A stretch of DNA of 64,000 bases, from positions 1-64,000 of the forward strand of contig NZ_AUWR01000035.1 of the NCBI RefSeq assembly GCF_000455125.1, read 5' to 3'. The position numbers and the translations under genes are program-made. The stretch comes from Mycobacterium sp. UM_WGJ. Lineage in GTDB: Bacteria; Actinomycetota; Actinomycetes; Mycobacteriales; Mycobacteriaceae. Within the stretch, counting starts at the first letter, position 1, and each line of letters starts with the position of its first letter. Under the pieces are notes generated by a model. The model made no database searches and was not told the origin of the DNA. It was given only the letters and a program-made list of their open reading frames with translations. Below are positions 35,124 through 62,420 of this stretch, piece by piece.

Positions 35124-35792
35124 CTAGACCTTGGGGCTGTCGTCGTCGCCGATCAGCAACCGGACCGCCAGGTCCAGTCGGGTGCTGAAATCGGTGGCCG
35201 ACGCCCGGCGGGTCAGCCAGGCCAGCAGGTTGGACAGCCACACATCCGAGATCACCCGGGAGATGTGGTACTGCTCCTCGGTCGGCTCGCCGTCGCTCAT
35301 GGCCCCGGCGAACATCGAGTCGATCAATTTCTGGACGTGGTCGACTTCGCCGGCCGCCGAGGCGTCGGCGAAGACATACGCCCGCGTCATCGCCTCGGTG
35401 AGCAGTGGGTTGCGCTGCATGGCGCGGTTGAGTTTGTTGACCACCAGGTTCAGTCGCTGGTGGCGGGTGGTTGCGGCGAACGTTGCCGGGTCCGTCTTGG
35501 TGTCCACCCGCGCGATCTCTCGGCCCATCGCCGAGACCAGCAGGTGAACCTTCGACGGGAAGTAGCGGTACAAGGTGCCGACAGCCACGTCCGCGCGGTC
35601 GGCGACGGCGCGCATCTGCACCGCGTCGTAGCCGCCCTTGGAGGCGATCGCCAGCGTCGCGTCCAGGATGCGCTTGCGGCGTTCGCGCTGCGCCTCGGAG
35701 CCCAGGTCGGATTCGGTCAGCACAGCGACGTTGACCACCTCGCGCGGTTGGCTTGCCGATCCGCGGCCTGCGGTGCCCTCAGCTGACGACAT
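35124..35792 (-). CDS. kstR: TetR-family transcriptional repressor KstR
   Basis: Represses cholesterol-catabolism genes and is released by 3-oxo-cholestenoyl-CoA-type ligands. The 222-residue protein has the TetR helix-turn-helix QRERRKRILDATLAIASKGG...AVADRADVAVGTLYRYFPSK and a ligand-binding domain closely matching Rv3574 (NKLNRAMQRNPLLTEAMTRA, SDVWLSNLLAWLTRRASATD). ATG at 35792 gives about 22 residues more than the classical 199-residue annotation; a GTG at 35723 lies nearer that start. An operator lies 140 bases upstream, so it probably regulates itself and fadE34 together. Confidence 0.93.
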   Translation of the reverse strand: MSSAEGTAGRGSASQPREVVNVAVLTESDLGSEAQRERRKRILDATLAIASKGGYDAVQMRAVADRADVAVGTLYRYFPSKVHLLVSAMGREIARVDTKTDPATFAATTRHQRLNLVVNKLNRAMQRNPLLTEAMTRAYVFADASAAGEVDHVQKLIDSMFAGAMSDGEPTEEQYHISRVISDVWLSNLLAWLTRRASATDFSTRLDLAVRLLIGDDDSPKV

Positions 35793-35932
35793 GTGCTGCG
35801 CGGCTCCCTCCGTCGGTCTCCTGGCCCATAACGATACGCATCGCGTAGTTGAGTTTTGTGCTTCCCGGCATCGGCCGGACCCAACGTGTCCAGCCATTAC
35901 GGTTCGACTTGACGCTCGGACGCTGGCACTAT

Positions 35933-35946
35933 TAGAACACGTTCTA
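35933..35946. promoter_or_regulatory. KstR operator between kstR and fadE34
   Basis: TAGAACACGTTCTA is a perfect 14-base match to the KstR consensus TnnAACnnGTTnnA and a near-perfect palindrome (only the central AC/AC pair deviates). It lies between the two divergent genes kstR and fadE34, both members of the KstR regulon. Confidence 0.88.
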
Positions 35947-38211: not shown

Positions 38212-40284
38212 ATGGAGTGCTGTGTGCCGGGCCGAATCGAAGTCGATGGCGTTACGCCGGTTGTGTCCTGCGGCCGGCAACCCGCCAAGGCAGTGGTCGG
38301 GGAGACCGTGCCGGTCCGCGCCGCGGTGTGGCGTGACGGACACGAAGTGGTCGCGGCGACCTTGGTCGTGCGCTACCTCGGCTGCGAGTCTCCACCGGGG
38401 TCGCAGACGCGTCTCGACGAGCAGGAAACGGCTGTTCCAGCGCCTCGAACAAAGCCGGCGCTGCTTCCAATGCGGGAGGGCGGCGAGCCGTACGTCTTCC
38501 ACGGTGAATTCGTTCCCGACCAGACCGGGATGTGGGCTTTCCGGGTCGACGGGTGGACCGATTCGATCCGCACCTGGCGTGACGCGGTGGTCGCCAAGCT
38601 GGACGCCGGCCAGGACGAGGCCGAACTATCCAACGATCTGTTGATCGGTGCCGACCTGCTGGAGCGTGCCGCCGCGGCGATGCCCCGCAGCCGGCGTGAA
38701 CCCGTCGTGGCAGCGGCTGCGGCATTGCGCCATCCCGGCGACCCGATCGTTCGCTCGGCGCCGGCATTGTCCGACGAGATCTCCCAGCTGCTCACCTGCT
38801 ACCCGCTGCGCGACCTGCTCACCCGCGGACAGCAGTATCGGGTCTGGGTGGATCGGCCACTGGCCCGCTTCAGCTCCTGGTACGAGATGTTTCCGCGCTC
38901 CACCGGCGGATGGGACTCAGCGGGCGCTCCGGTGCACGGCACGCTGGCCACCGCCGCGTCGGCGCTACCGCGGATCGCCGAGATGGGATTCGACGTGGTC
39001 TATCTCCCGCCGATCCACCCGATCGGAAAGGTGCACCGAAAGGGTCGCAACAACAGCGCGGTGGCCGAACCCGGCGATGTCGGGTCACCATGGGCGATCG
39101 GCAGCGACGAGGGCGGCCACGATGCGGTGCACCCCGACTTGGGAGCAGTCGATGATTTCGACCAATTCGTTGCCAGGGCACGCGAACTCGGTCTGGAGGT
39201 CGCCTTGGATCTGGCGTTGCAGTGCGCTCCTGATCACCCGTGGGTGCGCCAACACCGTCAGTGGTTCACCGAGTTGCCGGACGGGACGATCGCCTACGCG
39301 GAGAATCCGCCGAAGAAATACCAGGATATCTACCCATTGAATTTCGACAATGATCCCGCCGGCCTGTATGCCGAGGTCCACCGCGTGGTGCAGTTCTGGA
39401 TCTCACACGGGGTCAAAGTATTCCGGGTCGACAACCCGCATACCAAGCCACCCGGGTTCTGGGCATGGTTGATCACGAAAGTGAAGGCCGCCGAACCCGA
39501 TGTGCTGTTCCTCTCGGAGGCGTTCACCCCGCCGGCACGACAGTACGGCCTGGCCAAGCTCGGTTTCACCCAGTCCTACACCTACTTCACCTGGCGAACT
39601 TCCAAGGCCGAACTCGTCGAATTCGGCGAAGAGATAGCCGAATTCGCGGATTTTCGCCGCCCCAATCTGTTCGTCAACACACCGGACATCCTGCACGCCA
39701 GTCTGCAACATCACGGCCCCGGTATGTTCGCCATCCGCGCGGTGCTGGCCGCGACGATGGGCCCCTCCTGGGGCGTGTATTCCGGCTATGAATTGTTCGA
39801 GCACGAGGCGCTGCACGAGGGAAGCGAAGAATACCTTCATTCGGAGAAATACGAGCTGCGTCCCCGCGATTACGCCGCCGCGCGCCGCGAGGGCAGATCG
39901 CTGGAGCCGTTCATCGCTGCGCTCAACGCCATTCGCCGGCGGCACCCTGCCCTGCAGCAACTGCGCACCCTGCATTTCCATCACGTCGACAACGACGCGC
40001 TGCTGGCCTACAGCAAATTCGACCCGGCCAGCGGTGACACGGTGCTGGTGGTGGTGACCTTGAACGCATTCGGTGCCGAGGAAGCGACGTTGTCGCTCGA
40101 CCTGACGACGCTGGGCATGGCGCCCTACGAGCGGTTCTGGGTGCGTGACGAAATCACCGGGGAGGAATACCAATGGGGGCAAGACAATTATGTGCGACTC
40201 GATCCGAGCCGAGCGGTCGCCCACATCATCAATATGCCGGTGATGAGTGCCCAGGCGCGAACCGACCTGCTGCATCGGAGGTGA
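38212..40284 (+). CDS. glgE: Alpha-1,4-glucan:maltose-1-phosphate maltosyltransferase GlgE
   Basis: GH13 enzyme that extends alpha-glucan with maltosyl units from maltose-1-phosphate. The 690-residue protein has an N-terminal beta domain ([16 protein letters not shown]), a helical insert, and the catalytic barrel with [36 protein letters not shown] (nucleophile Asp), [15 protein letters not shown] (acid/base Glu) and NTPDIL. It ends with the all-beta C domain. First gene of the alpha-glucan block, co-directional with glgB (7-base gap). Close to M. tuberculosis GlgE (701 residues). Confidence 0.96.
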
Positions 40285-40291
40285 AGACCCG

Positions 40292-42520
40292 ATGACCCGA
40301 ATCAAAAACCAGCCCGGCGGGCTCGAGGTGAACCGCGAGGATCTCGATCGGCTGATGTCCGGCGTGCACTACGACCCGCACTCGATCCTGGGCGCCCACG
40401 ACAACGGCCAACACACCGTGATCCGGGCCTTGCGCCCGGGCGCGAGCGCGGTGGCGGTTGTGGTGGGCGGTGACCGGGTCCCGATGCAACACCTGGGCAA
40501 CGGATTGTTCGCCGTGGTGCTGCCGTTCGCCGACCTGATCGACTATCGGCTGCAGATCGACTATCCCGGCGTCGCCGAACCGCAGATCGTGGCCGACGGG
40601 TATCGCTTCCTGCCGACGCTGGGCGAGGTCGACCTGCACCTGTTCGGTGAGGGCCGACACGAACAGCTTTGGGAGGTTCTGGGCGCTCATCCGCGCACGT
40701 TCACCACTGCGGACGGGCCGGTGACGGGCGTGTCGTTCGCGGTGTGGGCGCCCAACGCCAAGGGAATCGGGTTGATCAGTGACAGCACCGGCTGGGACGG
40801 CATCGGCGCACCCATGCGGGCACTGGGCTCATCCGGTGTGTGGGAACTGTTCTGGCCGGGGTTTCCGCTCGACGGGCTGTACAAGTTTCGTGTGCACGGC
40901 GCAGACGATGTGGTCACCGAGCGGGCTGACCCAATGGCGTTCGCCGCCGAGACCCCGCCGCACACCGCGTCGCGTGTCGCCACCAATCGCTACACCTGGA
41001 GTGACGGCGACTGGATGGATCGGCGGGCCACCGCAAACCCGGCGTTCGAGGCCATGAGCGTCTACGAAGTGCACCTCGGATCGTGGCGGCCTGGGTTGAG
41101 CTACCGCCAGCTTGCCGCCGAGTTGACGGATTACGTTGTGGAGCAAGGGTTCACTCACGTCGAACTGCTGCCGGTCGCGGAGCATCCGTTCGGCGGATCG
41201 TGGGGATATCAGGTCACCTCGTACTACGCGCCGACCGCGCGTTTCGGCACGCCCGACGACTTCCGCTTCCTGGTGGACGCGCTGCATCGTGCCGGCATCG
41301 GAGTCATTGTGGACTGGGTGCCGGCGCACTTCCCGAAAGATGCCTGGGCGCTGGGCCGGTTCGACGGCACTCCGCTGTATGAGCACGCTGATCCGCGGCG
41401 CGGTGAGCAGCTCGACTGGGGAACCTATGTGTTCGATTTCGGTCGCCCTGAGGTGCGCAACTTTCTGGTGGCCAATGCGCTGTACTGGCTGTTGGAGTTT
41501 CACATCGACGGACTACGAGTGGACGCCGTGGCGTCGATGCTCTACCTGGACTACTCGCGACCTCAGGGCGGCTGGACGCCCAACGTCTACGGCGGCCGAG
41601 AGAACCTGGAGGCGGTGCAGTTCCTCCAGGAGATGAACGCCACGGCACACAAATCGGCGCCCGGGATCGTCACGATCGCCGAAGAATCGACCTCGTGGCC
41701 CGGAGTGTCGAGACCGACCAGCCTTGGTGGACTGGGCTTTTCGATGAAGTGGAACATGGGCTGGATGCACGACACCCTGTCCTATCTCGGTCACGACCCG
41801 GTGCACCGCTCCTACCATCACCACGAGATGACCTTCTCGATGCTCTATGCCTACAGCGAGAATTTCGTGCTGCCGATCAGCCATGACGAAGTGGTGCACG
41901 GCAAGGGCACGCTGTGGAGCCGGATGCCCGGTGACGACCACGCCAAGGCGGCCGGGGTGCGCAGTCTGCTGGCCTACCAGTGGGCGCATCCGGGAAAGCA
42001 ACTGCTGTTCATGGGCCAGGAGTTCGGCCAGCGTGCCGAGTGGTCCGAGGAACGCGGGCTGGACTGGTTCCAGCTCGACTCACCCGGCGAGCAGGACGGG
42101 TTCTCTGCGGGAATCCAGTGCTTGACCCGCGATCTCAACTCCGTCTATCGCAGCCGCCCCGCGCTGTGGAGCGAGGACACCAACCCGGCCGGCTATTCCT
42201 GGATCGATGCCAACGACTCCGCCAACAATGTGCTGAGCTTCCTGCGTTATGCGACAGACGGATCGGTGCTGGCGGCGGTATTCAACTTCTCCGGTGTGGT
42301 GCATACCGACTACCACCTCGGACTGCCGTTCGCGGGCCGGTGGCGCGAGATACTCAACACCGACGCCGTCGACTACAACGGCGGCGGTGCAGGAAATTTC
42401 GGTGGTGTGGATGCCGTCGACGAACCTCGGCACGGGCGTCCTGCTTCCGCGGTACTGGTGCTGCCCCCGCTGTCGGCGTTGTGGCTGGAACCCGCCGCGC
42501 AAGCGATCACCGCTCGCTGA
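40292..42520 (+). CDS. glgB: 1,4-alpha-glucan branching enzyme GlgB
   Basis: Adds alpha-1,6 branches to the GlgE polymer. The 742-residue GH13 enzyme has two N-terminal beta modules (CBM48-like; [20 protein letters not shown] and [18 protein letters not shown]), then the barrel with [25 protein letters not shown] (nucleophile), [13 protein letters not shown] (acid/base) and [25 protein letters not shown] precedes the ATG. The last 14 bases overlap the 3' end of mak on the other strand. glgE-glgB is also paired in M. tuberculosis. Confidence 0.96.
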
Positions 42521-43865
42521 GTCGACTCAGCGCTCGCAGCGGAATGGGTAGCCAGGCGGGCCGGTGGCGGGCCTCGTATCCGGCCTCATAGACCGCCTTG
42601 TCCAGTTCGTAGGCGGCCAATAGCGCTGCGCTATCCCGCGGGTCGGTGCCGGACTCCGCGCCATAGCCTTCGCAGAAGGCGCTGCGACAGCGGTCCAGCC
42701 ACTCCCGGGCTCGGGTGGCCAGTTGCCGGGCCTGGCCGTCGCGCGACAGGTCGGCCAGTTTGCCGTACGCGGCGTACTCGTAGGACCGCAGTACGCCGGC
42801 GACATCGCGCAGCGGAGAGTCCGGCCTCCGACGTTCCGGCAGCGGTGCGCCGGGCTCGCCTTCGAAGTCGATCAGCAGCCAGCCGTTCGGGGTGCGCAGC
42901 ACCTGACCCAGATGTAGGTCGCCGTGGACTCGTTGCACCGTGATCGTCTCGCCGGCGAGTGCGGCGAAGCGCTCTTCGATAGCGGTTAGGTGGGGGCGTA
43001 TTTCGGGCACGCTCTCCGCGGTCGCCGCCAACCGCGACAGCAGCGCCTCGGCCGGGAAGAGCGACTGCGAAGTCCCCAGCGTGTCGGCCAGTGTCCGGTG
43101 CACCGATGCGACAGCCTCACCGAGGCGGTACGACTCACCGGCGAAGTCGCCGCCCACTTCGTAGGCGTACAGATCGGCTTCGGCGAACAGGTCGCGCACG
43201 CTCGCGGTCGCCATCGCCCAGCCTTCGGCCGAGTTCAACGCGTATTCGCTGACCATTCCCAGCGCATAGGGCAACACGCCAGAGTCGCCCGGCAACTCGA
43301 TCTGGTAGGAGCCGAACAGTCGTGGCACGTGGGGATTGGCGGCTCGGCCCAGCGCTGCGTTGAGCTCGATGTCCGGATTGATCCCATCTCTGATCCGCCG
43401 GAACACCTTGAGGACCACTTTTTCCTCGACGATGACGCTGGTGTTGCTCTGCTCGGCTTCCGATACGCGGGACTCGGCGCGAACCGGCAGCGTGACCCCC
43501 GGCTCCGGTGTGAACGTGACGTCACCCCGCCGGGCTGCCGAATCGATCAGTGACAACAAGACTCGGGTTGCCGCGGCGTCGTAGAGAGCGTCGGAGGCGG
43601 TGTGCCCGCCATGGGTTCCGATCGTCGCGACCTGGGCGTACTCCGGCGCCAGGTCCACGTCCCAGGCGACTATCACCTGGTAGCGATCGGCGGTGCCGTC
43701 GGTGTAGCCGACGTCGATCAGCACCAGCTGCAGGTCGCCGCCCAACTCCACCACCAGGAAGGGATCTGCCTGGGCCAATTGCTTATTCCGCCCCGCGTAC
43801 CAGCGTCGGGTTGGTAGCCATTCCGCCCACGGCAGGCCCGCTGGTTCGCCGGTGCCACCGGTCAT
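42507..43865 (-). CDS. mak: Maltokinase (Mak/Pep2)
   Basis: Phosphorylates maltose with ATP to maltose-1-phosphate, the GlgE donor. The 452-residue protein has the N-terminal cap ([20 protein letters not shown]), the kinase segments [42 protein letters not shown] (Brenner-like H-G-D-L-H and D-F-E-G-E) and a C-terminal helical lobe ending in [11 protein letters not shown] at 43865 overlaps the treS stop (ATGA). In M. tuberculosis treS and mak are likewise adjacent and their products form a complex. Confidence 0.95.
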
Positions 43866-45661
43866 GACATGTCCTCCTTCGACTCGCGTGGCTCGCACAG
43901 CTGAAACCAGTAGAAGCCGTGGCCGGGAAGTGTGAGCAGGTATGGCAGTTTTCCGATTCGGGGAAACTCCACCGAACCGGTGAGTTCCACCGGTATGTGG
44001 CCGTCCCAGTGCTGCAGGTTCAGTTCGATCGGCTGGGGAAACCGGGACAGGTTGTTGACGCACAAGACCGTGTTCCCGTCGTCACCCGAGATCTCCCGCA
44101 CGAAGGCCAGCACCGACGGATTGGAGCCGCCCAGTTCGCGGAATTCGCCGAGGGCGAAGGCGTCATACCGGCGTCGAATGGCCAGCATGGTGCGAGTCCA
44201 GTTGAGCAACGACGTGGAGGTGTCGCGTTGCGATTCGACGTTGACGGACTGATGACCGTAGACCGCGTCCTGAATGGGCGGCAGGTACAGGCGGCCGGGG
44301 TTGGCGGTGGAGAAGCCCGCGTTGCGGTCGGGTGTCCACTGCATCGGGGTGCGCACCGCGTCGCGGTCGCCCAGCCAGATGATGTCACCCATCCCGATCT
44401 CGTCACCGTAGTAGAGGATCGGGGAGCCGGGCAGCGACAGCAACAGGGCGGTGAACAGTTCGATCTGGTTGCGGTCCTTGTCCAGCAGCGGGGCAAGCCG
44501 GCGCCGGATCCCCACATTCGCCTTCATCCGCGGGTCTTTGGCGTATTCGGCGTACATGTAGTCGCGCTCGTCGTCGGTGACCATCTCCAAGGTCAACTCG
44601 TCATGGTTGCGCAAGAAGATTCCCCATTGCGCCATATGGGGTATCGGTGGCGTCTGCGCCAGGATCTCCGAGATCGGGAAGCGTGACTCTCGGCGTACCG
44701 CCATGAAAATGCGTGGCATCAGCGGGAAGTGGAATGCCATGTGGCATTCATCACCGCCGGTGTCCGGGTTGCCGAAATACTCGACCACGTCCGTCGGCCA
44801 CTGATTGGCCTCGGCCAGCAGAACTCTGCCGGGAAACTCGTCGTCGACCACCTTGCGGCAGCGCTTCAGGAAGTCATGTGTCTCAGGCAGGTTTTCGCAG
44901 TTGGTTCCCTCCCTCTCGAACAGGTACGGCACCGCGTCCAACCGAAACCCATCGATGCCGAGGTTGAGCCAGAACCGCAGCACATCGATCATGGCTTCCT
45001 GCACCGCCGGGTTGTCATAGTTCAGATCCGGCTGGTGGGAGAAGAATCGGTGCCAATAGAACTGCTTGCGCACCGCGTCGAACGTCCAGTTGGACTCCTC
45101 GGTGTCGACGAAGATGATCCGGGCATCGGCGTACCGTTCGCTGGTGTCACTCCACACGTAGTAGTCGCCATGGGGACCGTCGGGGTCTTGCCGCGACTGT
45201 TGAAACCACGGGTGACTGTCGGAGGTGTGGTTCATCACCAGATCGGTGATCACCCGAATACCGCGCCGGTGGGCGGCGTCGAGCAGTTCGACGAAATCGT
45301 CGACCGTGCCGAACTCCGGCAACACCTTGTAGAAATCCCGGATGTCATAGCCGCCGTCGCGCAACGGCGAGTCGTAGAACGGCGGCAACCACAGACAGTC
45401 GACGCCGAGCCACTGCAGGTAGTCCAGCTGCTCGGTCAGGCCCCGCAGGTCCCCGATCCCGTCCCCGTTGGAGTCGTAGAACGCCCGGACCAGTACCTCG
45501 TAGAACACCGCTCGCTTGAACCAGACCGGGTCCGCCGGCAGGGCCGCGGCGTCGCCGAAATCGTCCGCGCTCGGGTGCTCGACGATGCCGTCCTCGACAT
45601 GGCTGCCCGCCCCGGGGTCTGCTACGTCCTGACCAAGTTCGTCGTCCGCGTCGAAGGCCAT
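43862..45661 (-). CDS. treS: Trehalose synthase / maltose alpha-D-glucosyltransferase TreS
   Basis: Interconverts trehalose and maltose. The 599-residue GH13 enzyme has an acidic N-terminal tail, then [54 protein letters not shown], the nucleophile region [18 protein letters not shown], acid/base [22 protein letters not shown] and the maltokinase-contacting C-terminal beta domain. It lies between malQ (30-base gap) and mak (overlap). Same length class as M. tuberculosis TreS (601). Confidence 0.96.
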
Positions 45662-45691
45662 ATCTCGACATGTACCCCATTCCGGTCGTGA

Positions 45692-47689
45692 TTACCTGGC
45701 AGGCGATTGGTCATCGTGATCGTGCGAGAACAACGCGGCGGTGCGGGCGATCCGCGGATCGGCCTGCAACTGTTCGAGAGGCGCGGACAGCGGCAGACGC
45801 CAATTCGGATACTGATCCACGGTGCCGGGCAGGTTGGGCTGACAAGGCTCGGCCAGCACGTCGTAGGGGGAGACCAGTTTCAGCCGGCTCGGGGTGGCCG
45901 CCAGAAAGCGGTGCATGGCGTCGATGATCCGCGGCTCATCCGGAGCCATCTCGTCATGCTCAAGAAACCCTTCGGTACGCAGTAGCTCAAGCCATTCGGC
46001 TCGTTCCTGCTCGGCGGCGGACTGTGCGGCCGCCACGTCGTCGAGCAGACCCCGCTCGGCGCGTGCCCGCACATGCTCGGCGCGGAAGAATCCGGCGGCG
46101 GTGGGCAGGTCGTGGGTAGAGATGCTGGCAGCCACCCGCGACGGCCACTTCGCGGACGGAAGCAACGGCTGGCCGGGGGCCGATTCATCGCGAGTGAACC
46201 AGGAGACCGCGCACCCCAGCATTTCATTGCCGGCCAGCGCGCGGGTGACTTCCGGTTCGACGGTTCCCAGGTCCTCGCCGATGACGACAGCGTTGGCGCG
46301 ATGCGCCTCCAGTGCCAGCACCGCGAGCATGACGTCGGCGTCGTAGTGGACATAGGTGCCGCGGTCGGGGCTTTCGCCAGGGGGGATCCACCACAGCCGC
46401 CACAATCCGGCGACGTGATCGATGCGTACGCCGTCCGCGTGGGCCAGGACGGCCCGCAGCATGTCGCGCACCGCGCGGTAGCCGGTGGCCGCCAAGCGGT
46501 CCGGTCGCCATGGCGGCAGACACCAGTCCTGCCCACGAGGGCTGAACGTATCCGGAGGCGCGCCGACGCTGGCATCAACGGCCAGCACGTCGGCCAGGGC
46601 CCACGCATCGGCGCCATCGCCGTCGACGCCGACTGCCAGGTCGTGCAGCACGCCCAGCGCCATGCCCGCGTTCTTGGCGGCACTCTGCACCGCCAGCAGC
46701 TGCTCCGTGCAGCGCTGCTGCACCCAAGCATGAAACGCCACCCTCGGCGCGAGCTCCCGCCGTGCGGCGGCCACCGCGGCGCCGGTCGCGTCGTGTAGGG
46801 GCGCAGGCCAGCGGGACCACCGGCTGCCATGGCGTTCGGCCAGCGCGCAGTAGGTCGCCCAGTCACGCAACGCCCGAGTCCGCGACGACTCGTCGAGCGG
46901 GCAGGGGCGCCCTTCAGAACGCCAGAGCAACTCCAGGGCCGCGCGCTTGGCGGCCCAGACGAGGTCGTAGTCGATTCGTGCGGTGTCCGCAGCGACCCGC
47001 AGCGCGTCGACTTCTGCCCGGGTGGCCGAGTCGGCGCGCTGGTAGGCGGCGAGGTCAGCGATGCACAGGGCGAGCGGGTTGGCGAACTGCCGGCTCGAAG
47101 GCGTATACGGCGACGGCTGCACCGGATACGTCGGTCCCGGTGCGTGCAGCGGATTGAGCAGCACCGCCCCGGCGCCGTGCTCGGCGGCTGTCCACCTCAC
47201 CCAGTCCCGCAGGTCCGCCAAGTCCCCGATGCCCCAGGAGCGCGCGGATCGCAACGCGTAGAGCTGCAGCATCCATCCCCAGGTGAGCGGTGCCCGCGGC
47301 ACCCGGGCGGGAGCCGCCACCAGCGTGACTTCCTGGCCATCGCGCAGCTGAAGCTGATACCAGCCGGGCGACAGATCGGCGGGCAGTTCATCGCGCACTG
47401 CGGTGCGCTCGCCGCCCTCGCTCACCAGTGCGGCGGCTCCGGAAAACGGTAGGGGGCGTCCGGTCACCCGCACAGCGGCTGTCGGAGGCGAAACGCCCGC
47501 ACGCTCGCGTTCATCCAGCCTGGCCAACTCATGGCGGCGGTCGGCCGCACTGCGCGCCTCGACCTCGAGCAGCCGAAGAACCCGGACCACCACGTCTTCG
47601 TCCACCTGCACCATCTCGCGCCGTTCGTTGCGGTAGGCGGTGGCTACGCCGTGCGCGGTCGCCAGCCGGCGTAGGTCATCGGGCGCCAC
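45692..47689 (-). CDS. malQ: 4-alpha-glucanotransferase MalQ
   Basis: GH77 disproportionating enzyme that rearranges maltodextrins and releases glucose. The 665-residue protein has a helical N-terminal domain, SARSWGIGDLADLRDWV, NPLHAPGPTYPVQPSPYTPSSRQF, the nucleophile region ADGVRIDHVAGLWRLWWIP, acid/base VVIGEDLGTVEPEV and STHDLPTAAGFF. GTG at 47689; the open frame upstream is not conserved. It heads the leftward malQ-treS-mak operon, divergent from treX across 160 bases in which I see no clear motif. M. tuberculosis keeps malQ elsewhere (Rv1781c). Confidence 0.93.
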   Translation of the reverse strand: MAPDDLRRLATAHGVATAYRNERREMVQVDEDVVVRVLRLLEVEARSAADRRHELARLDERERAGVSPPTAAVRVTGRPLPFSGAAALVSEGGERTAVRDELPADLSPGWYQLQLRDGQEVTLVAAPARVPRAPLTWGWMLQLYALRSARSWGIGDLADLRDWVRWTAAEHGAGAVLLNPLHAPGPTYPVQPSPYTPSSRQFANPLALCIADLAAYQRADSATRAEVDALRVAADTARIDYDLVWAAKRAALELLWRSEGRPCPLDESSRTRALRDWATYCALAERHGSRWSRWPAPLHDATGAAVAAARRELAPRVAFHAWVQQRCTEQLLAVQSAAKNAGMALGVLHDLAVGVDGDGADAWALADVLAVDASVGAPPDTFSPRGQDWCLPPWRPDRLAATGYRAVRDMLRAVLAHADGVRIDHVAGLWRLWWIPPGESPDRGTYVHYDADVMLAVLALEAHRANAVVIGEDLGTVEPEVTRALAGNEMLGCAVSWFTRDESAPGQPLLPSAKWPSRVAASISTHDLPTAAGFFRAEHVRARAERGLLDDVAAAQSAAEQERAEWLELLRTEGFLEHDEMAPDEPRIIDAMHRFLAATPSRLKLVSPYDVLAEPCQPNLPGTVDQYPNWRLPLSAPLEQLQADPRIARTAALFSHDHDDQSPAR

Positions 47690-47850
47690 ACCACGCCTAT
47701 ACCCGCCTGAGGTGCATTTCAACAGCCAGCACCGAACCGGTCCGTAGGGTCGGAGACGGCGATAGTTTGACCGGCCGGCAGGCGGGTAGCCACAACCCGG
47801 TCGGCGCCGCAGCATCGAAGTATCGAAATTCCTGACGAAATTGGGTGAGC

Positions 47851-50049
<2,199 letters not shown>

Positions 50050-50052
50050 CGC

Positions 50053-52350
50053 ATGGCCAGCCCGGTGCTGTCCACCTACCGGTTGCAGCTGCGGGGCGCA
50101 GAAAGCGGGTTCACGTTCACCTTCGCGGACGCCGAGAATCTACTCGACTATTTCGATGCACTTGGCATTTCGCACCTTTACCTCTCGCCGATCATGACGG
50201 CGGTGCGCGGATCGACACACGGCTACGACGTCGTCGATCCGACCACCGTCTCTGCGGAACTGGGTGGCGCGCAGGGGCTGGCGCGGCTGTCAGCGGCCGC
50301 GCGTGCCCGCGGCATCGGCCTGATCGTCGATATCGTGCCCAATCACGTCGGGGTACAACGGCCGGAGCAGAACCCATGGTGGTGGGACGTGCTGAAGCAC
50401 GGCCGATCCTCCCGGTACGCCGCGTTCTTCGACATCGATTGGGGCCTCGGTGACGGCCGAATCATTCTGCCGGTACTGGGCTCTGACGGCGATACTGCCG
50501 ACCTGACCGTGGATGGCGAGTCCCTACGCCTGGGTGACCTGGTGTTTCCGATCGCACCCGGAACCGGCGCCGGCAGCGGCGCCGAAGTCCACGATCGCCA
50601 GCACTATCGACTGGTCGGCTGGCGCAGCGGTAGCTGTGGCTACCGCCGCTTCTTTTCGATCACGTCGTTGGCCGGCCTGCGTCAGGAGGATCGAGCGGTT
50701 TTCGACGCCTGGCACGCCGAGCCGGCGCGCTGGTTCGACGCTCAGCTCATCGATGGCGTGCGGGTCGATCACCCGGATGGCCTGTCGGATCCGCAGGGAT
50801 ATCTGCACCGGCTGCGCGCGCTGATCGGACCGGATGCCTGGATCGTCGTCGAAAAGATTCTGGCCGTTGACGAGGCGCTCGATCCCAGCCTGCCGGTCGC
50901 CGGCTCCACCGGTTACGACGCACTACGGGAGATCGGTGGGTTGTTCATCGACCCCAACGGTGAGCCGGCGCTGACCGAGCTGTGTGAAACCGCCGGTGTC
51001 GACTACCGCGCGATGCCGAACCTGCTGGCCGAGCAGAAGGAGCTCGCGGCTGCCGAGACGCTGGGCAGCGAGCTGGCGCGGCTATGTCGTTGTGTGGTGA
51101 GCGCTACCGGCGCCGAGCATCCGCTGTTGTCCGATGCCATCGTGGCCTTGCTCGGTCACATCGGGGTGTATCGCAGCGACTATCCCGGGTTGGCGACGAT
51201 AGTGCCGGTGGCGCTAGCACATACGCTGGCGCAGCAGCCAGAACTCGACGAGCCGCTTGCACTGCTCGCGGCTGCGCTGGCCGACGGTGGGGAAGCAGCG
51301 GTGCGGCTGCAACAGCTGTGCGGAGCGGTGACCGCCAAGGCGACCGAAGACTGCCTGTTCTACCGGGATGCCAGGCTGGTGTCGCTCAACGAAGTCGGCG
51401 GCAGCCCGCAGTATTTCGGTGTGGGCTCGGCCGAGTTTCATCATCGGGCCGCCACGCGGGCTCGGCACTGGCCGCACACGATGACCACGCTGTCCACCCA
51501 CGACACCAAACGCGGCGAGGATGTCAGGGCACGCATCGGCGTGTTGTCGCAGGTGCCGTCGTTGTGGGCGGAGTTCGTCGCTCGTTGGGAATCGAGGGCT
51601 CCCTCACCCGATCTGGCCACCGGGCTCTTCCTGTGGCAGAACATCTTCGGGGTGTGGCCACTCGACGGTCGAGTGAGCACGGCAGTGCGCGAGCGACTGC
51701 ATGCCTATGCCGAAAAGGCGGTTCGCGAGGCGGACCGGCGGACATCGTGGCACGATCCCGACGCAGCGTTCGAGGGCGCGCTGCACCAGTGGCTCGACGA
51801 CATCCTCGATGGTCCTATCGCGCAGGAACTGACCGAGTTCGTCGCCGAACTCGCTCCGCACATCGACAGCGACATCCTGGGGCAGAAACTGCTGTCCTTG
51901 ACCGTCCCCGGCGTCCCGGACGTCTATCAGGGCACCGAGCTCTGCGATGACAGCTTGGTCGACCCGGACAATCGGCGGCCGGTCGACTACGGTGCACGCC
52001 GCGCAGCGCTGGAGGCCTTGCATCACCCGAAAATGCGGGTGGTCGTTGCGGCACTGCGAATGCGGCGAGCCCGTCCCGACAGCTTCCTGCGCGGCGGCTA
52101 CCACCCGGTGCAGGCGTCAGGACCGGCGTCAGAACATCTCGTGGCCTTTCGCCGGGGCGACGACGTGGTGGTGGCGGTCAGCCGTTGGACGGTGCGCCTG
52201 CAGGGCACCGGATGGGGCGATACGGCTCTCCCGCTGCCCCCCGGGACGTGGTCTGACGCGCTCTCCGGCGCCAGCCACAACGGAATGGTGCGAGCAGTCG
52301 AGCTGTTCGCCGAACTGCCGGTTGTGCTGCTGGAGCGTGTCGATGACTGA
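50053..52350 (+). CDS. treY: Maltooligosyl trehalose synthase TreY
   Basis: Isomerises the reducing-end glucose link of maltodextrins to alpha,alpha-1,1 (trehalosyl dextrin). The 765-residue enzyme (same length as in M. tuberculosis) has STYRLQLRGAESGFTFTFAD, GISHLYLSPIMTAVRGSTHGYDV, LIVDIVPNHVGVQRPEQNPWW, the nucleophile region DGVRVDHPDGLSDP, IVVEKILAVDE and TTLSTHDTKRGEDVRARI. Overlaps treZ by eight bases. Confidence 0.96.
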   Translation: MASPVLSTYRLQLRGAESGFTFTFADAENLLDYFDALGISHLYLSPIMTAVRGSTHGYDVVDPTTVSAELGGAQGLARLSAAARARGIGLIVDIVPNHVGVQRPEQNPWWWDVLKHGRSSRYAAFFDIDWGLGDGRIILPVLGSDGDTADLTVDGESLRLGDLVFPIAPGTGAGSGAEVHDRQHYRLVGWRSGSCGYRRFFSITSLAGLRQEDRAVFDAWHAEPARWFDAQLIDGVRVDHPDGLSDPQGYLHRLRALIGPDAWIVVEKILAVDEALDPSLPVAGSTGYDALREIGGLFIDPNGEPALTELCETAGVDYRAMPNLLAEQKELAAAETLGSELARLCRCVVSATGAEHPLLSDAIVALLGHIGVYRSDYPGLATIVPVALAHTLAQQPELDEPLALLAAALADGGEAAVRLQQLCGAVTAKATEDCLFYRDARLVSLNEVGGSPQYFGVGSAEFHHRAATRARHWPHTMTTLSTHDTKRGEDVRARIGVLSQVPSLWAEFVARWESRAPSPDLATGLFLWQNIFGVWPLDGRVSTAVRERLHAYAEKAVREADRRTSWHDPDAAFEGALHQWLDDILDGPIAQELTEFVAELAPHIDSDILGQKLLSLTVPGVPDVYQGTELCDDSLVDPDNRRPVDYGARRAALEALHHPKMRVVVAALRMRRARPDSFLRGGYHPVQASGPASEHLVAFRRGDDVVVAVSRWTVRLQGTGWGDTALPLPPGTWSDALSGASHNGMVRAVELFAELPVVLLERVDD

Positions 52351-54067
52351 GTTCGCCGTCTGGGCACCAACCCCGGCAGTCGTGGGTCTCGATGTCGACG
52401 GGGTAGCGCATCCGATGGACCGTTCCGACGGTGGGTGGTGGCGGGCGAGGCTCGACGTGGCGCCCGATGCCCGCTACGGGTTTCTGCTCGATGACGACCC
52501 GCAGGTTCTCCCCGATCCGCGGTCGGCCCGCCAGCCCGACGGCGTGCACGCGCGCTCGGCGGTGTGGGACGAGGAGAGCCTGACCTGGACCGACCACGAC
52601 TGGGCGGGACGGCCCGTCGAAGGTGCGGTGATCTATGAAATGCACGTCGGCACTTTCACGCCCGCCGGCACCTTCGATTCCGCCGTCGCCAAACTGGATC
52701 ACCTGGTCGACCTGGGTGTCGACTTCGTCGAACTCATGCCGGTCAACGCCTTTTCCGGCACGCACGGCTGGGGCTATGACGGGGTGCTGTGGTACGCCGT
52801 GCATGAGCCCTACGGCGGCCCGAACGGCTTGGCGCGCTTTGTCGATGCCTGCCACGGCCGGGGCCTGGGGGTACTGATCGACGTCGTCTTCAACCACCTG
52901 GGTCCGTCCGGCAACTACCTTCCCCGCTTCGGGCCGTATCTGTCGGGGGCACATAACCCGTGGGGCAATGCCATCAACATCGATGGCCCGGATTCCGACG
53001 AAGTGCGCCGCTACATCATCGACTGTGCGCTGCGCTGGATGCGGGTGTTCCGCGTCGATGGCCTACGGCTGGATGCCGTACACGCGCTGGTGGACACCAC
53101 AGCCATCAATATTCTCGAAGAGCTGGCGGCCGAAACCGATGCGCTTGCCGCGCGGTTGGGGCGTCCGCTGTCACTCATCGCGGAAAGTGACCGCAACGAT
53201 CCGCGCACCGTCACCCGCCGCGAAGACGGTGGCTACGGGATCACCGCGCAATGGGATGACGACATCCACCACGCCATCCACACCGCGGTATCCGGTGAGC
53301 GGCAAGGCTATTACGCCGATTTCGGCAGCATGGCCACTTTGGCGACCACCCTGCGTAACGGCTTTTTCCATGCGGCCACGTACTCCTCGTTTCGCCGCCG
53401 GCGGCACGGGCGTCCGCTGCCGATCTCGCAGATTCCGGCCACCCGCCTGTTGGCCTATACGTGCACCCACGATCAGGTCGGCAACCGAGCGCTCGGCGAC
53501 CGTCCGTCGCAGAACCTGACGGCCGGGCAACTCGCGGTAAAGGCTGCACTGGTACTGCTGTCGCCCTACACCGCAATGCTTTTCATGGGAGAGGAGTGGG
53601 GCGCGCGTACCCCTTTTCAGTTCTTCACCGCACATGAGGACCCGCAGGTGGCACGCGCCACCGCCGAGGGCCGCAAAGCCGAATTCGCCGAGCACGGCTG
53701 GGATGCCGACGACATCCCCGACCCGCAGGATCCCGAAACCTACCAGCGGTCCAAGCTGGCCTGGCGCGAGCTCGAGGAGCAACACCACCTGCGGCTGTTG
53801 CGCCTCTACAGGTCGCTGATCGGACTTCGCGCTGAAGTCGGTCCGGCCGGACCTTGGTTGAGCCAGCTGGTGATCGACTACGACGAGGGCCGGCGATGGC
53901 TCGTCATGCACCGCGGTCCGCTCCTGGTGGCGTGCAATCTCAGCGAGGACACGGTGAGCGTGCCGGTCCACGGCGAGCTGGTACTGGCGTGGGGATCACC
54001 GGCGGTCGGGCCTGAGACCACCCGACTGCCCGGGCATTCGTTCGCGGTCCTGCGACCGGCTCCATGA
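52343..54067 (+). CDS. treZ: Malto-oligosyltrehalose trehalohydrolase TreZ
   Basis: Cleaves trehalose from the trehalosyl dextrins made by TreY. The 574-residue GH13 enzyme has the N-terminal beta domain (TEFAVWAPTPAVVGLDVDG), YEMHVGTFTPAGTF, HGWGYDGVLWYAVHEPYGGPNG, the nucleophile FRVDGLRLDAVHALVD, acid/base LIAESDRNDPRT and CTHDQVGNRALGDR. ATG at 52343 overlaps the treY stop; the longer frame reaching back into treY is not real. The 216-base gap after it leads to the nitrate reductase gene. Confidence 0.95.
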   Translation: MTEFAVWAPTPAVVGLDVDGVAHPMDRSDGGWWRARLDVAPDARYGFLLDDDPQVLPDPRSARQPDGVHARSAVWDEESLTWTDHDWAGRPVEGAVIYEMHVGTFTPAGTFDSAVAKLDHLVDLGVDFVELMPVNAFSGTHGWGYDGVLWYAVHEPYGGPNGLARFVDACHGRGLGVLIDVVFNHLGPSGNYLPRFGPYLSGAHNPWGNAINIDGPDSDEVRRYIIDCALRWMRVFRVDGLRLDAVHALVDTTAINILEELAAETDALAARLGRPLSLIAESDRNDPRTVTRREDGGYGITAQWDDDIHHAIHTAVSGERQGYYADFGSMATLATTLRNGFFHAATYSSFRRRRHGRPLPISQIPATRLLAYTCTHDQVGNRALGDRPSQNLTAGQLAVKAALVLLSPYTAMLFMGEEWGARTPFQFFTAHEDPQVARATAEGRKAEFAEHGWDADDIPDPQDPETYQRSKLAWRELEEQHHLRLLRLYRSLIGLRAEVGPAGPWLSQLVIDYDEGRRWLVMHRGPLLVACNLSEDTVSVPVHGELVLAWGSPAVGPETTRLPGHSFAVLRPAP

Positions 54068-54283: not shown

Positions 54284-57200
54284 ATGCCCGCGCAAAACGA
54301 CTCCCAGCATGCAGAGGTCGTCTCCACGCTGTGTGCCTACTGCGGGGTCGGATGCGGCCTGGTGCTGCAGGTCGAGACCGACGCGGTCACCGGGCGCCGC
54401 CGGGTAGTCAAATCCAGCGGTGACCCATCCCACCCGACCAACTCCGGCCGGCTGTGCACCAAGGGTGCCACCACCGCGGATCTGCTCGCCGCGCCCGGCC
54501 GACTGGCGTCCGCGTTCATGCGGCCCGGCCGCGACGAGCCCGTCGAACCGACTGACATCGATACCGCCATCACCCACTGCGCCGGCCGGTTGCGGGCGAT
54601 CATCGACGAGCAAGGACCCGACGCCGTAGCGCTCTACGTTTCCGGGCAGATGTCCACCGAGGCGCAGTACCTGGCGAACAAGCTCGCCAAGGGCTTTATC
54701 GGCACCAACCAGATCGAGTCCAACTCGCGACTGTGTATGGCCAGCGCCGGCAGCGGCTACAAGCAGTCACTCGGCGCCGACGGGCCGCCCGGCTCCTATC
54801 AGGACTTCGATCACGCCGACGTGTTCCTCGTGATCGGCGCGAATATGGCCGACTGCCACCCGATTCTGTTCCTGCGGATGATGGACCGCGTCAAGGCCGG
54901 CGCCAAGCTGATCGTCGTCGATCCACGTCGCAGTGCCACCGCGGAGAAGGCCGACCTGTACTTGCAGATCGCACCCGGAACCGATCTGGCGCTGCTCAAT
55001 GGGCTGCTGCATCTGATCGTCGCGAATGGCCACACCGACGACGAGTTTATCGCCGAGCACACGCAGGGCTGGGAGGTCATGCCCAGCTTCCTTGAGCAGT
55101 TCACGCCGGAGGCGGTGGCTGAGCTCACCGGACTCTCCGAAGCTGACATTCGCACTGCCGCAGCATGGATCGGCGAGGCGGACAACTGGATGAGTTGCTG
55201 GACGATGGGACTCAACCAGAGCACCCATGGAACCTGGAACACCAACGCCATCTGCAATCTGCACCTGGCCACCGGGGCGATCTGCAAGACGGGCAGCGGA
55301 CCGTTCTCCCTGACCGGTCAGCCCAACGCGATGGGTGGCCGAGAAATGGGCTACCTGGGCCCAGGACTGCCAGGCCAGCGCAGCGTCGTCTCGGCCGACG
55401 ACCGAGAATTCGTCGAGGACATCTGGGATATCCCACGCGGCTCGCTGCGCGCCGAGCTGGGCACCGGCACCATCGACATGTTCTCGCGGATGGCCGACGG
55501 CCAGATCAAGGCGTGCTGGATCATCTGCACCAACCCGGTTGCGACGGTGGCGAATCGGAAGACCGTGCTGGAAGGGCTGGAACGGGCCGAGCTGGTGATC
55601 GCCCAGGATGCCTTCGCCGACAACGAGACTGCCGCCTACGCCGACGTGCTGTTGCCGGCTGCGCTGTGGAGTGAGTGTGACGGAGTGATGGTCAACTCCG
55701 AGCGCAATCTCACGCTCTTTCAAAAGGCGGTCGACCCGGTCGGCCAATCGCTGCCGGACTGGCAGATCATCGCCCGCATCGCGGCAGAGATGGGATACGC
55801 CAAGGCGTTCGACTACTCGAGCGCTGAGGAGGTGTTCGAAGAGATCAAACTATTCGCCAACCCCAAGACCGGCTACGACCTACGCGGCATCAGCTACGAG
55901 CGATTGCGCCGGACGCCGATTCAGTGGCCCTGCCCGCCGGAGAGTACGCGAGATCGCCACCCCATCCGCTATCTCAACGACGGGGCGAGTCAGACGCGGC
56001 TGGTCCGCGAAGACGGCAGCGTGCCGCGGTTGGCTTTCGCGACCGAGTCCGGCCGCGCGGTCTTCTGCGCCCGCCCGCATCTGCTGCCCGCCGAGATGCC
56101 CGATGACGACTATCCGTACCTGCTCAACACCGGACGGCTGCCGCATCAGTGGCACACCATGACCAAGACCGGAAAGGTCGCCAAGCTCAACAAGCTCAAT
56201 CCGGGCCCGTTCGTGGAGATCCACCCCGACGACGCCGTCCGGCTGGGCATCGTCGACGACGACCCGGTGGAGATCGCCTCGCGCCGGGGCCGGGCCGTGC
56301 TGCCGGCGGTGGTCACCGACCGGGTGCGTCCGGGGAACTGCTTCGCGCCGTTTCACTGGAATGACGTCTTCGGTGAGTACCTGTCGATCAACGCCGTCAC
56401 CAATGACGCCGTTGACCCGACATCGCAACAGCCTGAGTACAAGGCATGTGCGGTGACCTTGGCCAAGGTGGTGGTCGAATCGCCGCGCGAGCTGGAAGCA
56501 CCCCCTACGTCGCAGGCCGGCCAGGTCAGCTTGGACCGGGTGGACACCCTCATCGAATTATTCGGGCTCAGTGGGGAATCGGTGACCACCGTGCCCTCAT
56601 TCGCTCCCATGGAGCGCATCTATCTGAGTGGGTTGCTGACCGCGCTCCGGACCGAGGCGGGGCGCAGCGCAACCGGTGTGCCGACGGTGCCGGCCAATGC
56701 CCCGCTGGAGCCGGCCACCCGCATGTGGGTCGACGGCCTGCTGGCCGGGCTGTACTCCCGGCACCCAACGCCGGCGAGCCTGCCGGCCGAGGGGTTGCGC
56801 CCAGAGTCGATCGTGGTGCTGTGGGCCTCGCAGACCGGCAACGCCGAAGAGGTGGCCGCCCGCTGCGCGGCCCACCTCGGCGAGGCCGGACTGCCGGTCG
56901 CCTTGCACACGATGAACGACTTCCCGGTGACCGGCCTGTCGGCAACCCGACAGCTGATCGTGGTCTCCAGCACCACCGGTGACGGTGACCCGCCCGACAA
57001 CGGCGCTGCCCTGTGGGAAGAGCTGTCCGGTGACGGGACACCACAACTCACCGACACGCGCTACGCCGTGTTGGCGCTGGGTGACTCCAACTACGACGAC
57101 TTCTGTGGTTATGGACGCAAACTCGACACCCGGCTGGCCGAACTCGGCGCCACCCGAATCCTGGACCGTGTCGACTGCGAGCCGGATTACGACGACGCCG

Positions 57201-60134: not shown

Positions 60135-60148
60135 TAGAACAGGTTACA
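60135..60148. promoter_or_regulatory. KstR operator at kshB
   Basis: TAGAACAGGTTACA fits TnnAACnnGTTnnA at every fixed base. On the minus strand it contains TAACCT (60146 down to 60141), a TAnnnT -10 nine bases before the kshB ATG, so bound repressor would cover the core promoter. Confidence 0.82.

Positions 60149-61496: not shown

Positions 61497-62420
<924 letters not shown>

What the first reader, a model, noticed from the sequence alone, without database searches (positions are those of the whole stretch)
38212..54067. Complete trehalose/alpha-glucan cycle gathered in one 16-kb cluster
glgE, glgB, mak, treS, malQ, treX, treY and treZ stand together in three operons (rightward pair, leftward triple, rightward triple). 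Together they can run trehalose to maltose to maltose-1-phosphate to branched glucan and back to trehalose. M. tuberculosis spreads them over four loci. No glgC/glgA/glgM/glgP is included, so the cluster seems built for trehalose-driven cycling rather than ADP-glucose glycogen synthesis.
Basis: partly seen in the sequence, partly recalled or inferred. Interest (0 to 1): 0.75.

Follow-up and report, generated by a model that had tools for sequence, protein, structure and literature searches.

The report
Mosaic trehalose-glucan gene cluster in Mycolicibacter
In one small branch of the mycobacteria, eight enzymes that turn the sugar trehalose into a glycogen-like store and back sit side by side, partly as extra copies, around what looks like a stress-activated double switch; most relatives keep these genes scattered.

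Summary
In detail: glgE, glgB, mak, treS, malQ, treX, treY and treZ fill 38.2-54.1 kb as a rightward pair, a leftward triple and a rightward triple. The genome is a Mycolicibacter (M. terrae complex). Cluster-length matches occur in 7 of 172 scored genus genomes, and in all 10 Mycolicibacter loci among the 80 malQ loci kept. The same genome keeps glgE-glgB-glgP at the usual site, a lone treX at the usual treXYZ site, and glgC-glgM elsewhere, so the cluster is a second, mosaic set. Its TreX+TreY nest in another mycobacterial group (vertical placement rejected, p-AU 0.004); TreX alone does not reject it. The cluster lies inside the KstR cholesterol locus. The malQ/treX divergent region holds two conserved SigF-type promoters: GTTT-N15-GGGTAG toward treX in 17 of 17 cluster loci, not found before treX in 12 ordinary treXYZ or 7 native treX loci. 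Best reading: a general-stress (SigF) trehalose/alpha-glucan module, scattered in M. smegmatis, gathered into one locus. glgE2 is lost in several species and nearly all of the cluster in one. One other genus (g25) has its own treX-treY-glgP-glgE-glgB array. Regulation is inferred, not shown. New variant of a known kind.

The parts
35127..35897 (-). kstR, TetR repressor of cholesterol catabolism (left flank)
   Evidence: PDB phmmer: KstR 5ua2 E 2e-107
35933..35946 (.). KstR operator TAGAACACGTTCTA between kstR and fadE34
   Evidence: TNNAACNNGTTNNA: 2 in window, 0.09 expected; motif of PMC1995591
35951..38131 (+). two-domain acyl-CoA dehydrogenase, called FadE34-like by its place beside kstR; ends 92 nt before the likely glgE start
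   Evidence: Pfam; flanks the cluster in the other Mycolicibacter loci that reach it, except L113
38224..40284 (+). glgE2, maltosyltransferase (open frame from 38212; GTG 38224 likely start)
   Evidence: PF11896, PF21702; aligned to 4u33; conserved start
40292..42520 (+). glgB2, branching enzyme (open frame from 40247)
   Evidence: NF003811 953 bits
42507..43865 (-). mak (pep2), maltokinase (open frame to 44063)
   Evidence: PF18085; TIGR02457 below cut-off
43862..45661 (-). treS, trehalose synthase; only copy over the cut-off in the genome
   Evidence: TIGR02456 947.5 bits
45692..47689 (-). malQ (open frame to 47815); only GH77 gene found in the genome; one of two MalQ types in mycobacteria
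   Evidence: TIGR00217, PF02446; tree
47698..47723 (-). SigF-type promoter toward malQ: GTTGAAA-N12-GGGTATA (contains GTTG-N15-GGGTA)
   Evidence: exact (N10-14) in 15 of 17 cluster loci; 0 expected in window by chance
47765..47789 (+). SigF-type promoter toward treX: GTTT-N15-GGGTAG
   Evidence: 17 of 17 cluster loci; none before treX in 12 ordinary treXYZ loci and none in 7 native treX loci
47851..50049 (+). treX2 (glgX), debranching enzyme (open frame from 47845)
   Evidence: TIGR02100 990.7 bits
50053..52350 (+). treY, maltooligosyltrehalose synthase
   Evidence: TIGR02401 897 bits
52343..54067 (+). treZ, maltooligosyltrehalose trehalohydrolase (open frame from 51947)
   Evidence: TIGR02402 757.8 bits
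54284..58426 (+). assimilatory nitrate reductase fused to a CysJ-like reductase; right neighbour, absent from some cluster loci
60135..60148 (.). second KstR-type site, upstream of hsaA
60280..61470 (+). hsaA-like (right flank)
   Evidence: PDB 3afe E 8e-239 (HsaA name partly recalled, 2rfq is titled 3-HSA hydroxylase)
61503..62420 (+). hsaC-like (right flank)
   Evidence: PDB 2zi8 E 5e-178 (entry named BphC, HsaC name recalled)

Best explanation
The locus is a Mycolicibacter-specific, mosaic alpha-glucan/trehalose module placed inside the KstR cholesterol locus, read mainly from a divergent pair of SigF (general stress) promoters between malQ and treX. Steps: TreS isomerises trehalose to maltose, Mak phosphorylates it with ATP, GlgE2 polymerises maltose-1-phosphate and GlgB2 branches the glucan. 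TreX debranches it, TreY and TreZ release trehalose, and MalQ reshuffles short chains. Under stress or in stationary phase SigF would raise malQ-treS-mak and treXYZ together, so that the cell shifts quickly between trehalose (osmoprotectant) and glucan (store). The ordinary glgE-glgB-glgP and glgC-glgM remain as the housekeeping route. Shown: gene content, order, clade restriction among the genomes scored, second copies, conserved promoter blocks, the TreX+TreY tree conflict, loss of glgE2 in several species. Inferred: enzyme activities, SigF use, operons, stress function, direction of transfer.
For: Gene families. Clade restriction: 7 of 172 scored genus genomes; 10 of 10 Mycolicibacter loci against 0 of 70 others among the 80 malQ loci kept of 337 found. 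Second copies in the own genome. Usual treXYZ site holding treX without treY or treZ in 9 of 9 cluster genomes examined (in G101 the contig ends just after treX), and one treZ over the cut-off in each of these 9. TreX+TreY tree: cluster with G060, G071, G117 and G094 (100/99) inside the group that is sister to Mycolicibacter in native markers; holding that group together without the cluster rejected, p-AU 0.004. Cluster genes under purifying selection, dN/dS 0.03-0.23 after two mismatched cells are dropped. GTTT-N15-GGGTAG in 17 of 17 cluster loci, GTTGAAA-N12/13-GGGTATA in 15 of 17; both blocks invariant in an alignment of mean identity 64%. M. smegmatis SigF consensus GTTT-N14-19-GGGTA; in its sigF mutant a 4-alpha-glucanotransferase, a glgB, a treZ, a glgX, NarB and the trehalose genes MSMEG_6514/6515 are down (PMC4694148, passages).
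Against: No expression data. One GTTT-N14-18-GGGTA hit in the window is not rare by chance (0.38 expected), so the weight rests on conservation among related genomes. No clear SigF -35 lies upstream of glgE. TreX alone does not reject a common clade with the native Mycolicibacter TreX (p-AU 0.13). GlgE2 is sister to native Mycolicibacter GlgE plus L154 (95/90), so glgE2-glgB2 may be an old duplication. MalQ says little about origin: its type is also common in other mycobacteria. sigF was not looked for in this genome. glgE2 is missing in several species and most of the cluster in G078, so no strong need for it is shown. Genus g25 gathers treX, treY, glgP, glgE and glgB on its own, so gathering as such is not unique.
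Confidence: 0.6

Rival explanations
1. Ordinary shuffling: native genes of the pathway drifted together in the Mycolicibacter ancestor by local duplication and translocation; the cluster has no special regulation and the extra glgE, glgB and treX are redundant copies being lost.
For: glgE2 removed in L015, L046, L105 and L017 with short remnants left; most of the cluster gone in G078; GlgE2 sister to native GlgE; TreX alone does not reject vertical descent; another genus gathered five such genes on its own.
Against: TreX+TreY reject vertical placement; promoter blocks invariant across 8 aligned sequences; cluster genes under purifying selection.
Confidence: 0.24
2. KstR-linked reading: transcription from the KstR-controlled fadE34 promoter runs on into glgE2-glgB2, so that growth on sterols drives maltosyl transfer and glucan storage.
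For: glgE lies 92 nt after fadE34 on the same strand; perfect KstR palindrome before fadE34, the same palindrome form found in 9 of the 334 loci then held; in M. smegmatis fadE34 and otsB beside kstR are derepressed when kstR is deleted (PMC1995591, passages).
Against: A conserved GGGTAC leader stands between fadE34 and glgE or its remnant, as for an own promoter; no exact KstR motif inside the cluster; glgE2 absent in several species; no expression data. The junction folds no better than shuffles (z -0.43), so no clear terminator either way.
Confidence: 0.12
3. The whole block arrived as one horizontally transferred island from a single unknown actinomycete that already had the eight-gene cluster.
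For: TreX+TreY tree conflict.
Against: Genes point to different nearest relatives: GlgE2 to native Mycolicibacter, TreS to G013 among 9 other rows, TreX+TreY to G060 and kin. No eight-gene cluster seen in 20 other genera around treY or in 165 of 172 scored genus genomes. No tRNA in the window.
Confidence: 0.04

Closest known systems
Pseudomonas aeruginosa PAO1 trehalose/alpha-glucan operons (PA2151-53 and PA2160-65; PMC8084333, passages seen)
   Same: glgE, treS/pep2, glgB in one operon and treZ, malQ, treY, glgX in another nearby; same cycle
   Different: Pseudomonas includes glgA and fuses TreS to Pep2; Mycolicibacter has separate treS and mak, no glgA in the cluster, and extra native copies elsewhere
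Streptomyces coelicolor duplicated GlgE-pathway clusters (PMC5042117, passages seen)
   Same: extra copies of GlgE-pathway genes in one genome under different regulation
   Different: Streptomyces doubles the four-gene pathway; here glgE-glgB and treX are doubled, and malQ-treXYZ are included
treX-treY / glgP-glgE-glgB array of genus g25 (G429, G454, G470)
   Same: treXY and glgE-glgB within about 16 kb in 3 of 3 genomes looked at
   Different: includes glgP; no treS, mak, malQ or treZ found in the DNA read; proteins 45-73% identical
Scattered GlgE-pathway and treXYZ loci of other mycobacteria
   Same: same enzymes, about 62-89% identical
   Different: glgB-glgE-glgP, treXYZ, treS-mak and malQ stand at separate sites
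SigF regulon of M. smegmatis (PMC4694148, passages seen)
   Same: promoter motif GTTT-N15-GGGTA; MSMEG_6514/6515, a 4-alpha-glucanotransferase, a glgB, a treZ, a glgX and NarB among genes down in the sigF mutant
   Different: there at different locus numbers over the chromosome; here joined

Membership tests
GlgE pathway (TreS-Mak-GlgE-GlgB) | all four enzymes encoded | tested here: met
GlgE pathway (TreS-Mak-GlgE-GlgB) | enzymes make maltose-1-phosphate and branched glucan | not testable with these tools
   needs biochemistry
TreX-TreY-TreZ trehalose pathway | treX, treY and treZ over family cut-offs | tested here: met
SigF regulon | GTTT-N14-19-GGGTA upstream of operons | tested here: met
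   treX side GTTT-N15-GGGTA; malQ side GTTG-N15-GGGTA, a variant also listed in PMC4694148
SigF regulon | same motif upstream of glgE | tested here: not met
   only a GGGTAC -10-like block, no -35 match
SigF regulon | expression lost in a sigF mutant | not testable with these tools
   experiment needed
SigF regulon | the genome encodes SigF | not tested
KstR regulon | KstR operator before the operon | tested here: inconclusive
   operators at 35933 (before fadE34) and 60135 flank the cluster; no exact motif inside it
Mobile genomic island | boundary tRNA, integrase, odd composition | tested here: inconclusive
   no tRNA in window; GC 0.63-0.71 in the cluster against 0.64-0.73 in the rest; integrases not searched for
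Horizontal origin of treXY | gene tree conflicts with tree of native markers | tested here: met
   (p-AU 0.004, 3 of 12 rows of the tested group added after seeing the TreX tree); TreX alone not significant
Sole or complete pathway locus (reader) | no second copies at usual sites | tested here: not met
   glgE, glgB, treX, glgP and glgC-glgM elsewhere

The most novel reading that the evidence does not exclude
A stress-sigma submodule that is dispersed in other mycobacteria has been rebuilt as one locus from native, duplicated and imported genes, and its site inside the KstR locus gives it two inputs: SigF through the malQ/treX promoters and sterol-derepressed read-through from fadE34 into glgE2-glgB2, so that sterol carbon is banked as alpha-glucan under stress.
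Probability: 0.12. Interest if true: 0.65.

Novelty: new variant of a known kind. Interest (0 to 1): 0.45.

Why it matters
The GlgE pathway is studied in M. tuberculosis as a drug target because maltose-1-phosphate is toxic when GlgE is blocked (PMC4526890 and PMC4663749, abstracts in a listing). Several Mycolicibacter genomes encode two GlgE and two GlgB proteins, and related lineages lost the second GlgE (several species) or nearly the whole cluster (G078). That is a ready natural comparison of redundancy in this pathway. The conserved divergent promoter gives a small, directly testable hypothesis about how mycobacteria couple trehalose and glucan to the general stress response.

Tried and rejected
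The idea that the cluster is the genome's only set was rejected: second glgE, glgB and treX. The idea that G078 (nar-[treS-mak]-fadE34 only) is an ancestral simple stage was considered and set aside: in the tree of native markers G078 lies inside the cluster-bearing clade (100/100 for a 7-row subclade), so loss is simpler, although its native treY on a long branch (0.70) is then a puzzle. A terminator hairpin between fadE34 and glgE: folding no better than shuffles. Vertical origin of treXYZ: rejected with TreX+TreY, not with TreX alone; holding the cluster with the whole G060 group was not rejected for TreX either (p-AU 0.22). TreZ could not be added to that tree (11 of 34 rows passed my length filter, so its columns fell out). 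MalQ as a sign of import: dropped on checking, since I saw the other MalQ type in only four genomes and this type in many mycobacteria. My first count of 0 in 20 other genera was mended: in g25 glgE begins just past the stretch I had read. In one search, 224 of 396 genomes were not scored and one stretch was scored per genome. dN/dS cells 'G140 glgB' 0.473 and 'G140b treZ' 0.448 are matches to paralogues because the loci end before those genes; dropped. Of the eight native markers given, two (C54e with 8 rows, C62thl with 2) were too thin to count. The GlgE tree holds one broken row (L168, branch length 10). SigF-like sites before glgE, treS or nar: only partial matches, not counted. One filler stretch (G009:C1:1-100) was of no use.
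Full report
WHAT IS THERE. Eight open frames fill window 38.2-54.1 kb. Family models identify them as glgE, glgB (rightward), mak, treS, malQ (leftward), treX, treY and treZ (rightward). Likely starts, my reading of the sequence, are GTG 38224 for glgE, ATG 40292 for glgB, ATG 43865 for mak, GTG 47689 for malQ, ATG 47851 for treX and ATG 52343 for treZ. mak overlaps the treS stop, treZ overlaps treY by 8 nt, and treY starts 3 nt after treX, as in operons. GlgE aligns with the solved GlgE 4u33 from residue 2 to 690, including the blocks [16 protein letters not shown] and NTPDILH; that these hold the catalytic acids, and that 4u33 is the M. tuberculosis enzyme, is recalled. No glgC, glgA/glgM or glgP is in the cluster.

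WHICH ORGANISM. The window lies in an unnamed draft genome (G000, 4.47 Mb, 116 contigs). The named loci with the same array are all Mycolicibacter (M. terrae complex): heraklionensis, sinensis, nonchromogenicus, engbaekii, algericus, senuensis and icosiumassiliensis. The genus name of the window rests on those records.

HOW WIDESPREAD. A DNA search with the whole cluster gave cluster-length matches in 7 of 172 scored genus genomes (G000, G069, G086, G140, G073, G101, G022); 224 of the 396 genomes drawn were not scored, and one stretch was scored per genome (an earlier draw of 118 gave 6). The other 165 had shorter matches. MalQ found 337 relatives in named genomes, of which the best 80 were kept. 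Ten of the 80 are Mycolicibacter and all 10 carry malQ-treS-mak and treXYZ (glgB in 9; L042 ends before it); 0 of the other 70 carry another cluster gene at 35% identity or more within the DNA held, which is as short as 3.2 kb. Around treY in 20 other genera of the family (one genome each, up to 20 kb read), 19 show none of glgE, glgB, treS, mak or malQ. The twentieth, g25, does: in 3 of 3 genomes looked at (G429, G454, G470), treY-treX and glgP-glgE-glgB lie together within about 16 kb, without treS, mak, malQ or treZ in the DNA read. So the eight-gene array is clade-specific in what I could score, but partial gathering of the same genes has happened elsewhere.

SECOND COPIES. The same genome carries glgB-glgE at C62, 78% and 75% identical, beside an alpha-glucan phosphorylase. 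This is the usual site: 19 of 20 other mycobacterial loci fetched have glgP beside glgE; in the twentieth, L168, glgE is in pieces and glgP was not found. A second treX (77%) lies at C54 between the genes that flank treXYZ in 12 of 12 other mycobacteria fetched, but treY and treZ are gone there. The same treX without treY or treZ is found in 9 of 9 cluster-bearing genomes examined; in one of them, G101, the contig ends just after treX, so eight are fully read. Each of the nine has one treZ over the family cut-off. All 16 rows of a GlgE search of Mycolicibacter genomes (14 distinct genomes; two occur twice) keep the usual glgE, and 11 of 16 rows (9 of 14 genomes) also have the cluster copy. treS, malQ and treZ are single in G000. 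glgC and, beside it, a GlgM-type gene lie at C51. The view that the cluster stands in place of an ADP-glucose route is therefore not supported: M. tuberculosis itself uses both routes to maltose-1-phosphate (PMC4981310, abstract; PMC11046441, passages).

WHERE IT SITS. The left flank is kstR and a two-domain acyl-CoA dehydrogenase, FadE34-like by position. The right flank is a nitrate reductase-CysJ fusion in some species, then a ferredoxin reductase-like gene, hsaA and hsaC. Two KstR-type sites lie at 35933 and 60135 (2 found, 0.09 expected). In M. tuberculosis the motif lies in the intergenic regions Rv3573c/Rv3574 and Rv3570c/Rv3571 (PMC1995591, passages), so the cluster appears to have entered the KstR locus between those pairs. 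That these are near neighbours in M. tuberculosis follows from the locus numbers.

WHERE THE GENES CAME FROM. A tree of native-site markers puts all ten Mycolicibacter rows in one clade (100/100), sister to a group of nine other mycobacteria (99/99); I take that group to be slow growers, which no call told me. TreX+TreY of the cluster instead fall inside that group with G094, G071, G117 and G060 (100/99); holding the group together without the cluster costs 37 log units, p-AU 0.004. Three of the twelve rows held together were added after I had seen the TreX tree. TreX alone does not reject a clade with the native Mycolicibacter TreX (p-AU 0.13). MalQ comes in two types: the cluster's is 43-46% identical to that of the four other genomes searched (G060, G071, G117, G105) and 70-79% to that of many other mycobacteria such as M. 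europaeum and M. scrofulaceum; the types are split by a branch of 1.5. This does not by itself show import. GlgE2 forms one clade (100/100), sister to native Mycolicibacter GlgE plus L154 (95/90), which fits an old duplication or a close donor. TreS of the cluster is nearest to that of G013 among nine other rows. The module looks like a mosaic.

LOSS. In G022 and heraklionensis Davo only the first codons and the end of glgE2 remain; in G073 and engbaekii only the leader and first codons. icosiumassiliensis has no second glgE. G078 keeps only treS-mak at this site, with native treX-treY, no treZ over the cut-off and no GH77 gene found in its 160 contigs. Where present, the genes are under purifying selection: dN/dS 0.12-0.15 for glgE2 against 0.06-0.13 for the native glgE.

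HOW IT IS PROBABLY CONTROLLED. Between malQ and treX two blocks are invariant in 8 aligned sequences while the region's mean identity is 64%. Toward treX: GTTT-N15-GGGTAG, in 17 of 17 cluster loci (14 distinct genomes). Toward malQ: GTTGAAA-N12/13-GGGTATA, in 15 of 17. A wider form of the first motif is not found before treX in 12 ordinary treXYZ loci, five hits in four of them lying elsewhere, and is absent from 7 native treX loci of Mycolicibacter. In 318 other loci the exact form occurs 16 times, 9 of them further copies of cluster loci and one about 70 nt before treX of another genus, facing away (L293). In the window alone one such match is not rare (0.38 expected). The M. smegmatis SigF consensus is GTTT-N14-19-GGGTA, with GTTG-N15-GGGTA among its listed sites. 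In the sigF mutant MSMEG_6514/6515 (trehalose genes), a 4-alpha-glucanotransferase, a glgB, a treZ, a glgX and nitrate reductase NarB fall, some in one growth phase only (PMC4694148, passages). I read the cluster as that scattered SigF submodule brought together. This is inference: no expression was measured and sigF was not searched for.

LITERATURE. Searches for glgE/treS/treY/treZ/Actinobacteria, Mycolicibacter+trehalose, glgE+cluster terms and M. terrae complex genomics (listings of the best 12-20), and word searches in two mycobacterial genome papers (no mention of trehalose or glgE), gave no description of this cluster. The library holds open-access papers only. Chandra et al. 2011, the survey of glycogen-trehalose links, was seen only as a citation. 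Closest in print are the P. aeruginosa operons and the doubled Streptomyces clusters.

VERDICT. A new variant of a known kind, with a testable stress-regulon hypothesis.

Noticed in passing
window 54284-58426: A 1380-aa assimilatory nitrate reductase fused to a CysJ-like flavodoxin/FAD/NAD reductase, between treZ and the steroid genes; present in some cluster loci, absent in others. A NarB gene is in the M. smegmatis SigF regulon, but no GTT-N-GGGTA form was found before this one.
   Followed up: partly
L188 and L218 (G078): A Mycolicibacter-clade genome with only treS-mak at the site, no treZ over cut-off, no GH77 malQ found, and a native treY on a very long branch: perhaps a natural loss of the TreYZ route.
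   Followed up: partly
L017 9074, L105 17523, L046, L015: Remnants of glgE2 in the heraklionensis and engbaekii lineages show deletions that leave glgB2 behind the old glgE leader.
   Followed up: partly
L296+L335 (G454), L336-L337 (G429), L338 (G470): Genus g25 holds treY-treX and glgP-glgE-glgB together within about 16 kb: a separate gathering of the same enzymes.
   Followed up: partly
L113 (M. icosiumassiliensis): glgB2 lies next to a radA-like gene, with no fadE34 tail found: a rearrangement beside the cluster.
   Followed up: no
L047-L103: Two MalQ types (43-46% identical) occur in mycobacteria; the cluster's type stands apart from other cluster genes elsewhere, in L051 beside a sugar transporter and a wax ester synthase.
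   Followed up: partly
L277: In one genome of another genus (g18) two acyl-CoA dehydrogenase-like stretches lie between treY and treZ.
   Followed up: no
L183 (G013): The treS-mak locus nearest to the cluster TreS in the tree carries a divergent treX paralogue (68%) a few kb away.
   Followed up: no
L183, L185, L186, upstream of treS: Loose GGTG-N19-GGGTA matches stand shortly before treS in 3 of 7 treS-mak loci scanned; the pattern was permissive and also hit elsewhere.
   Followed up: no
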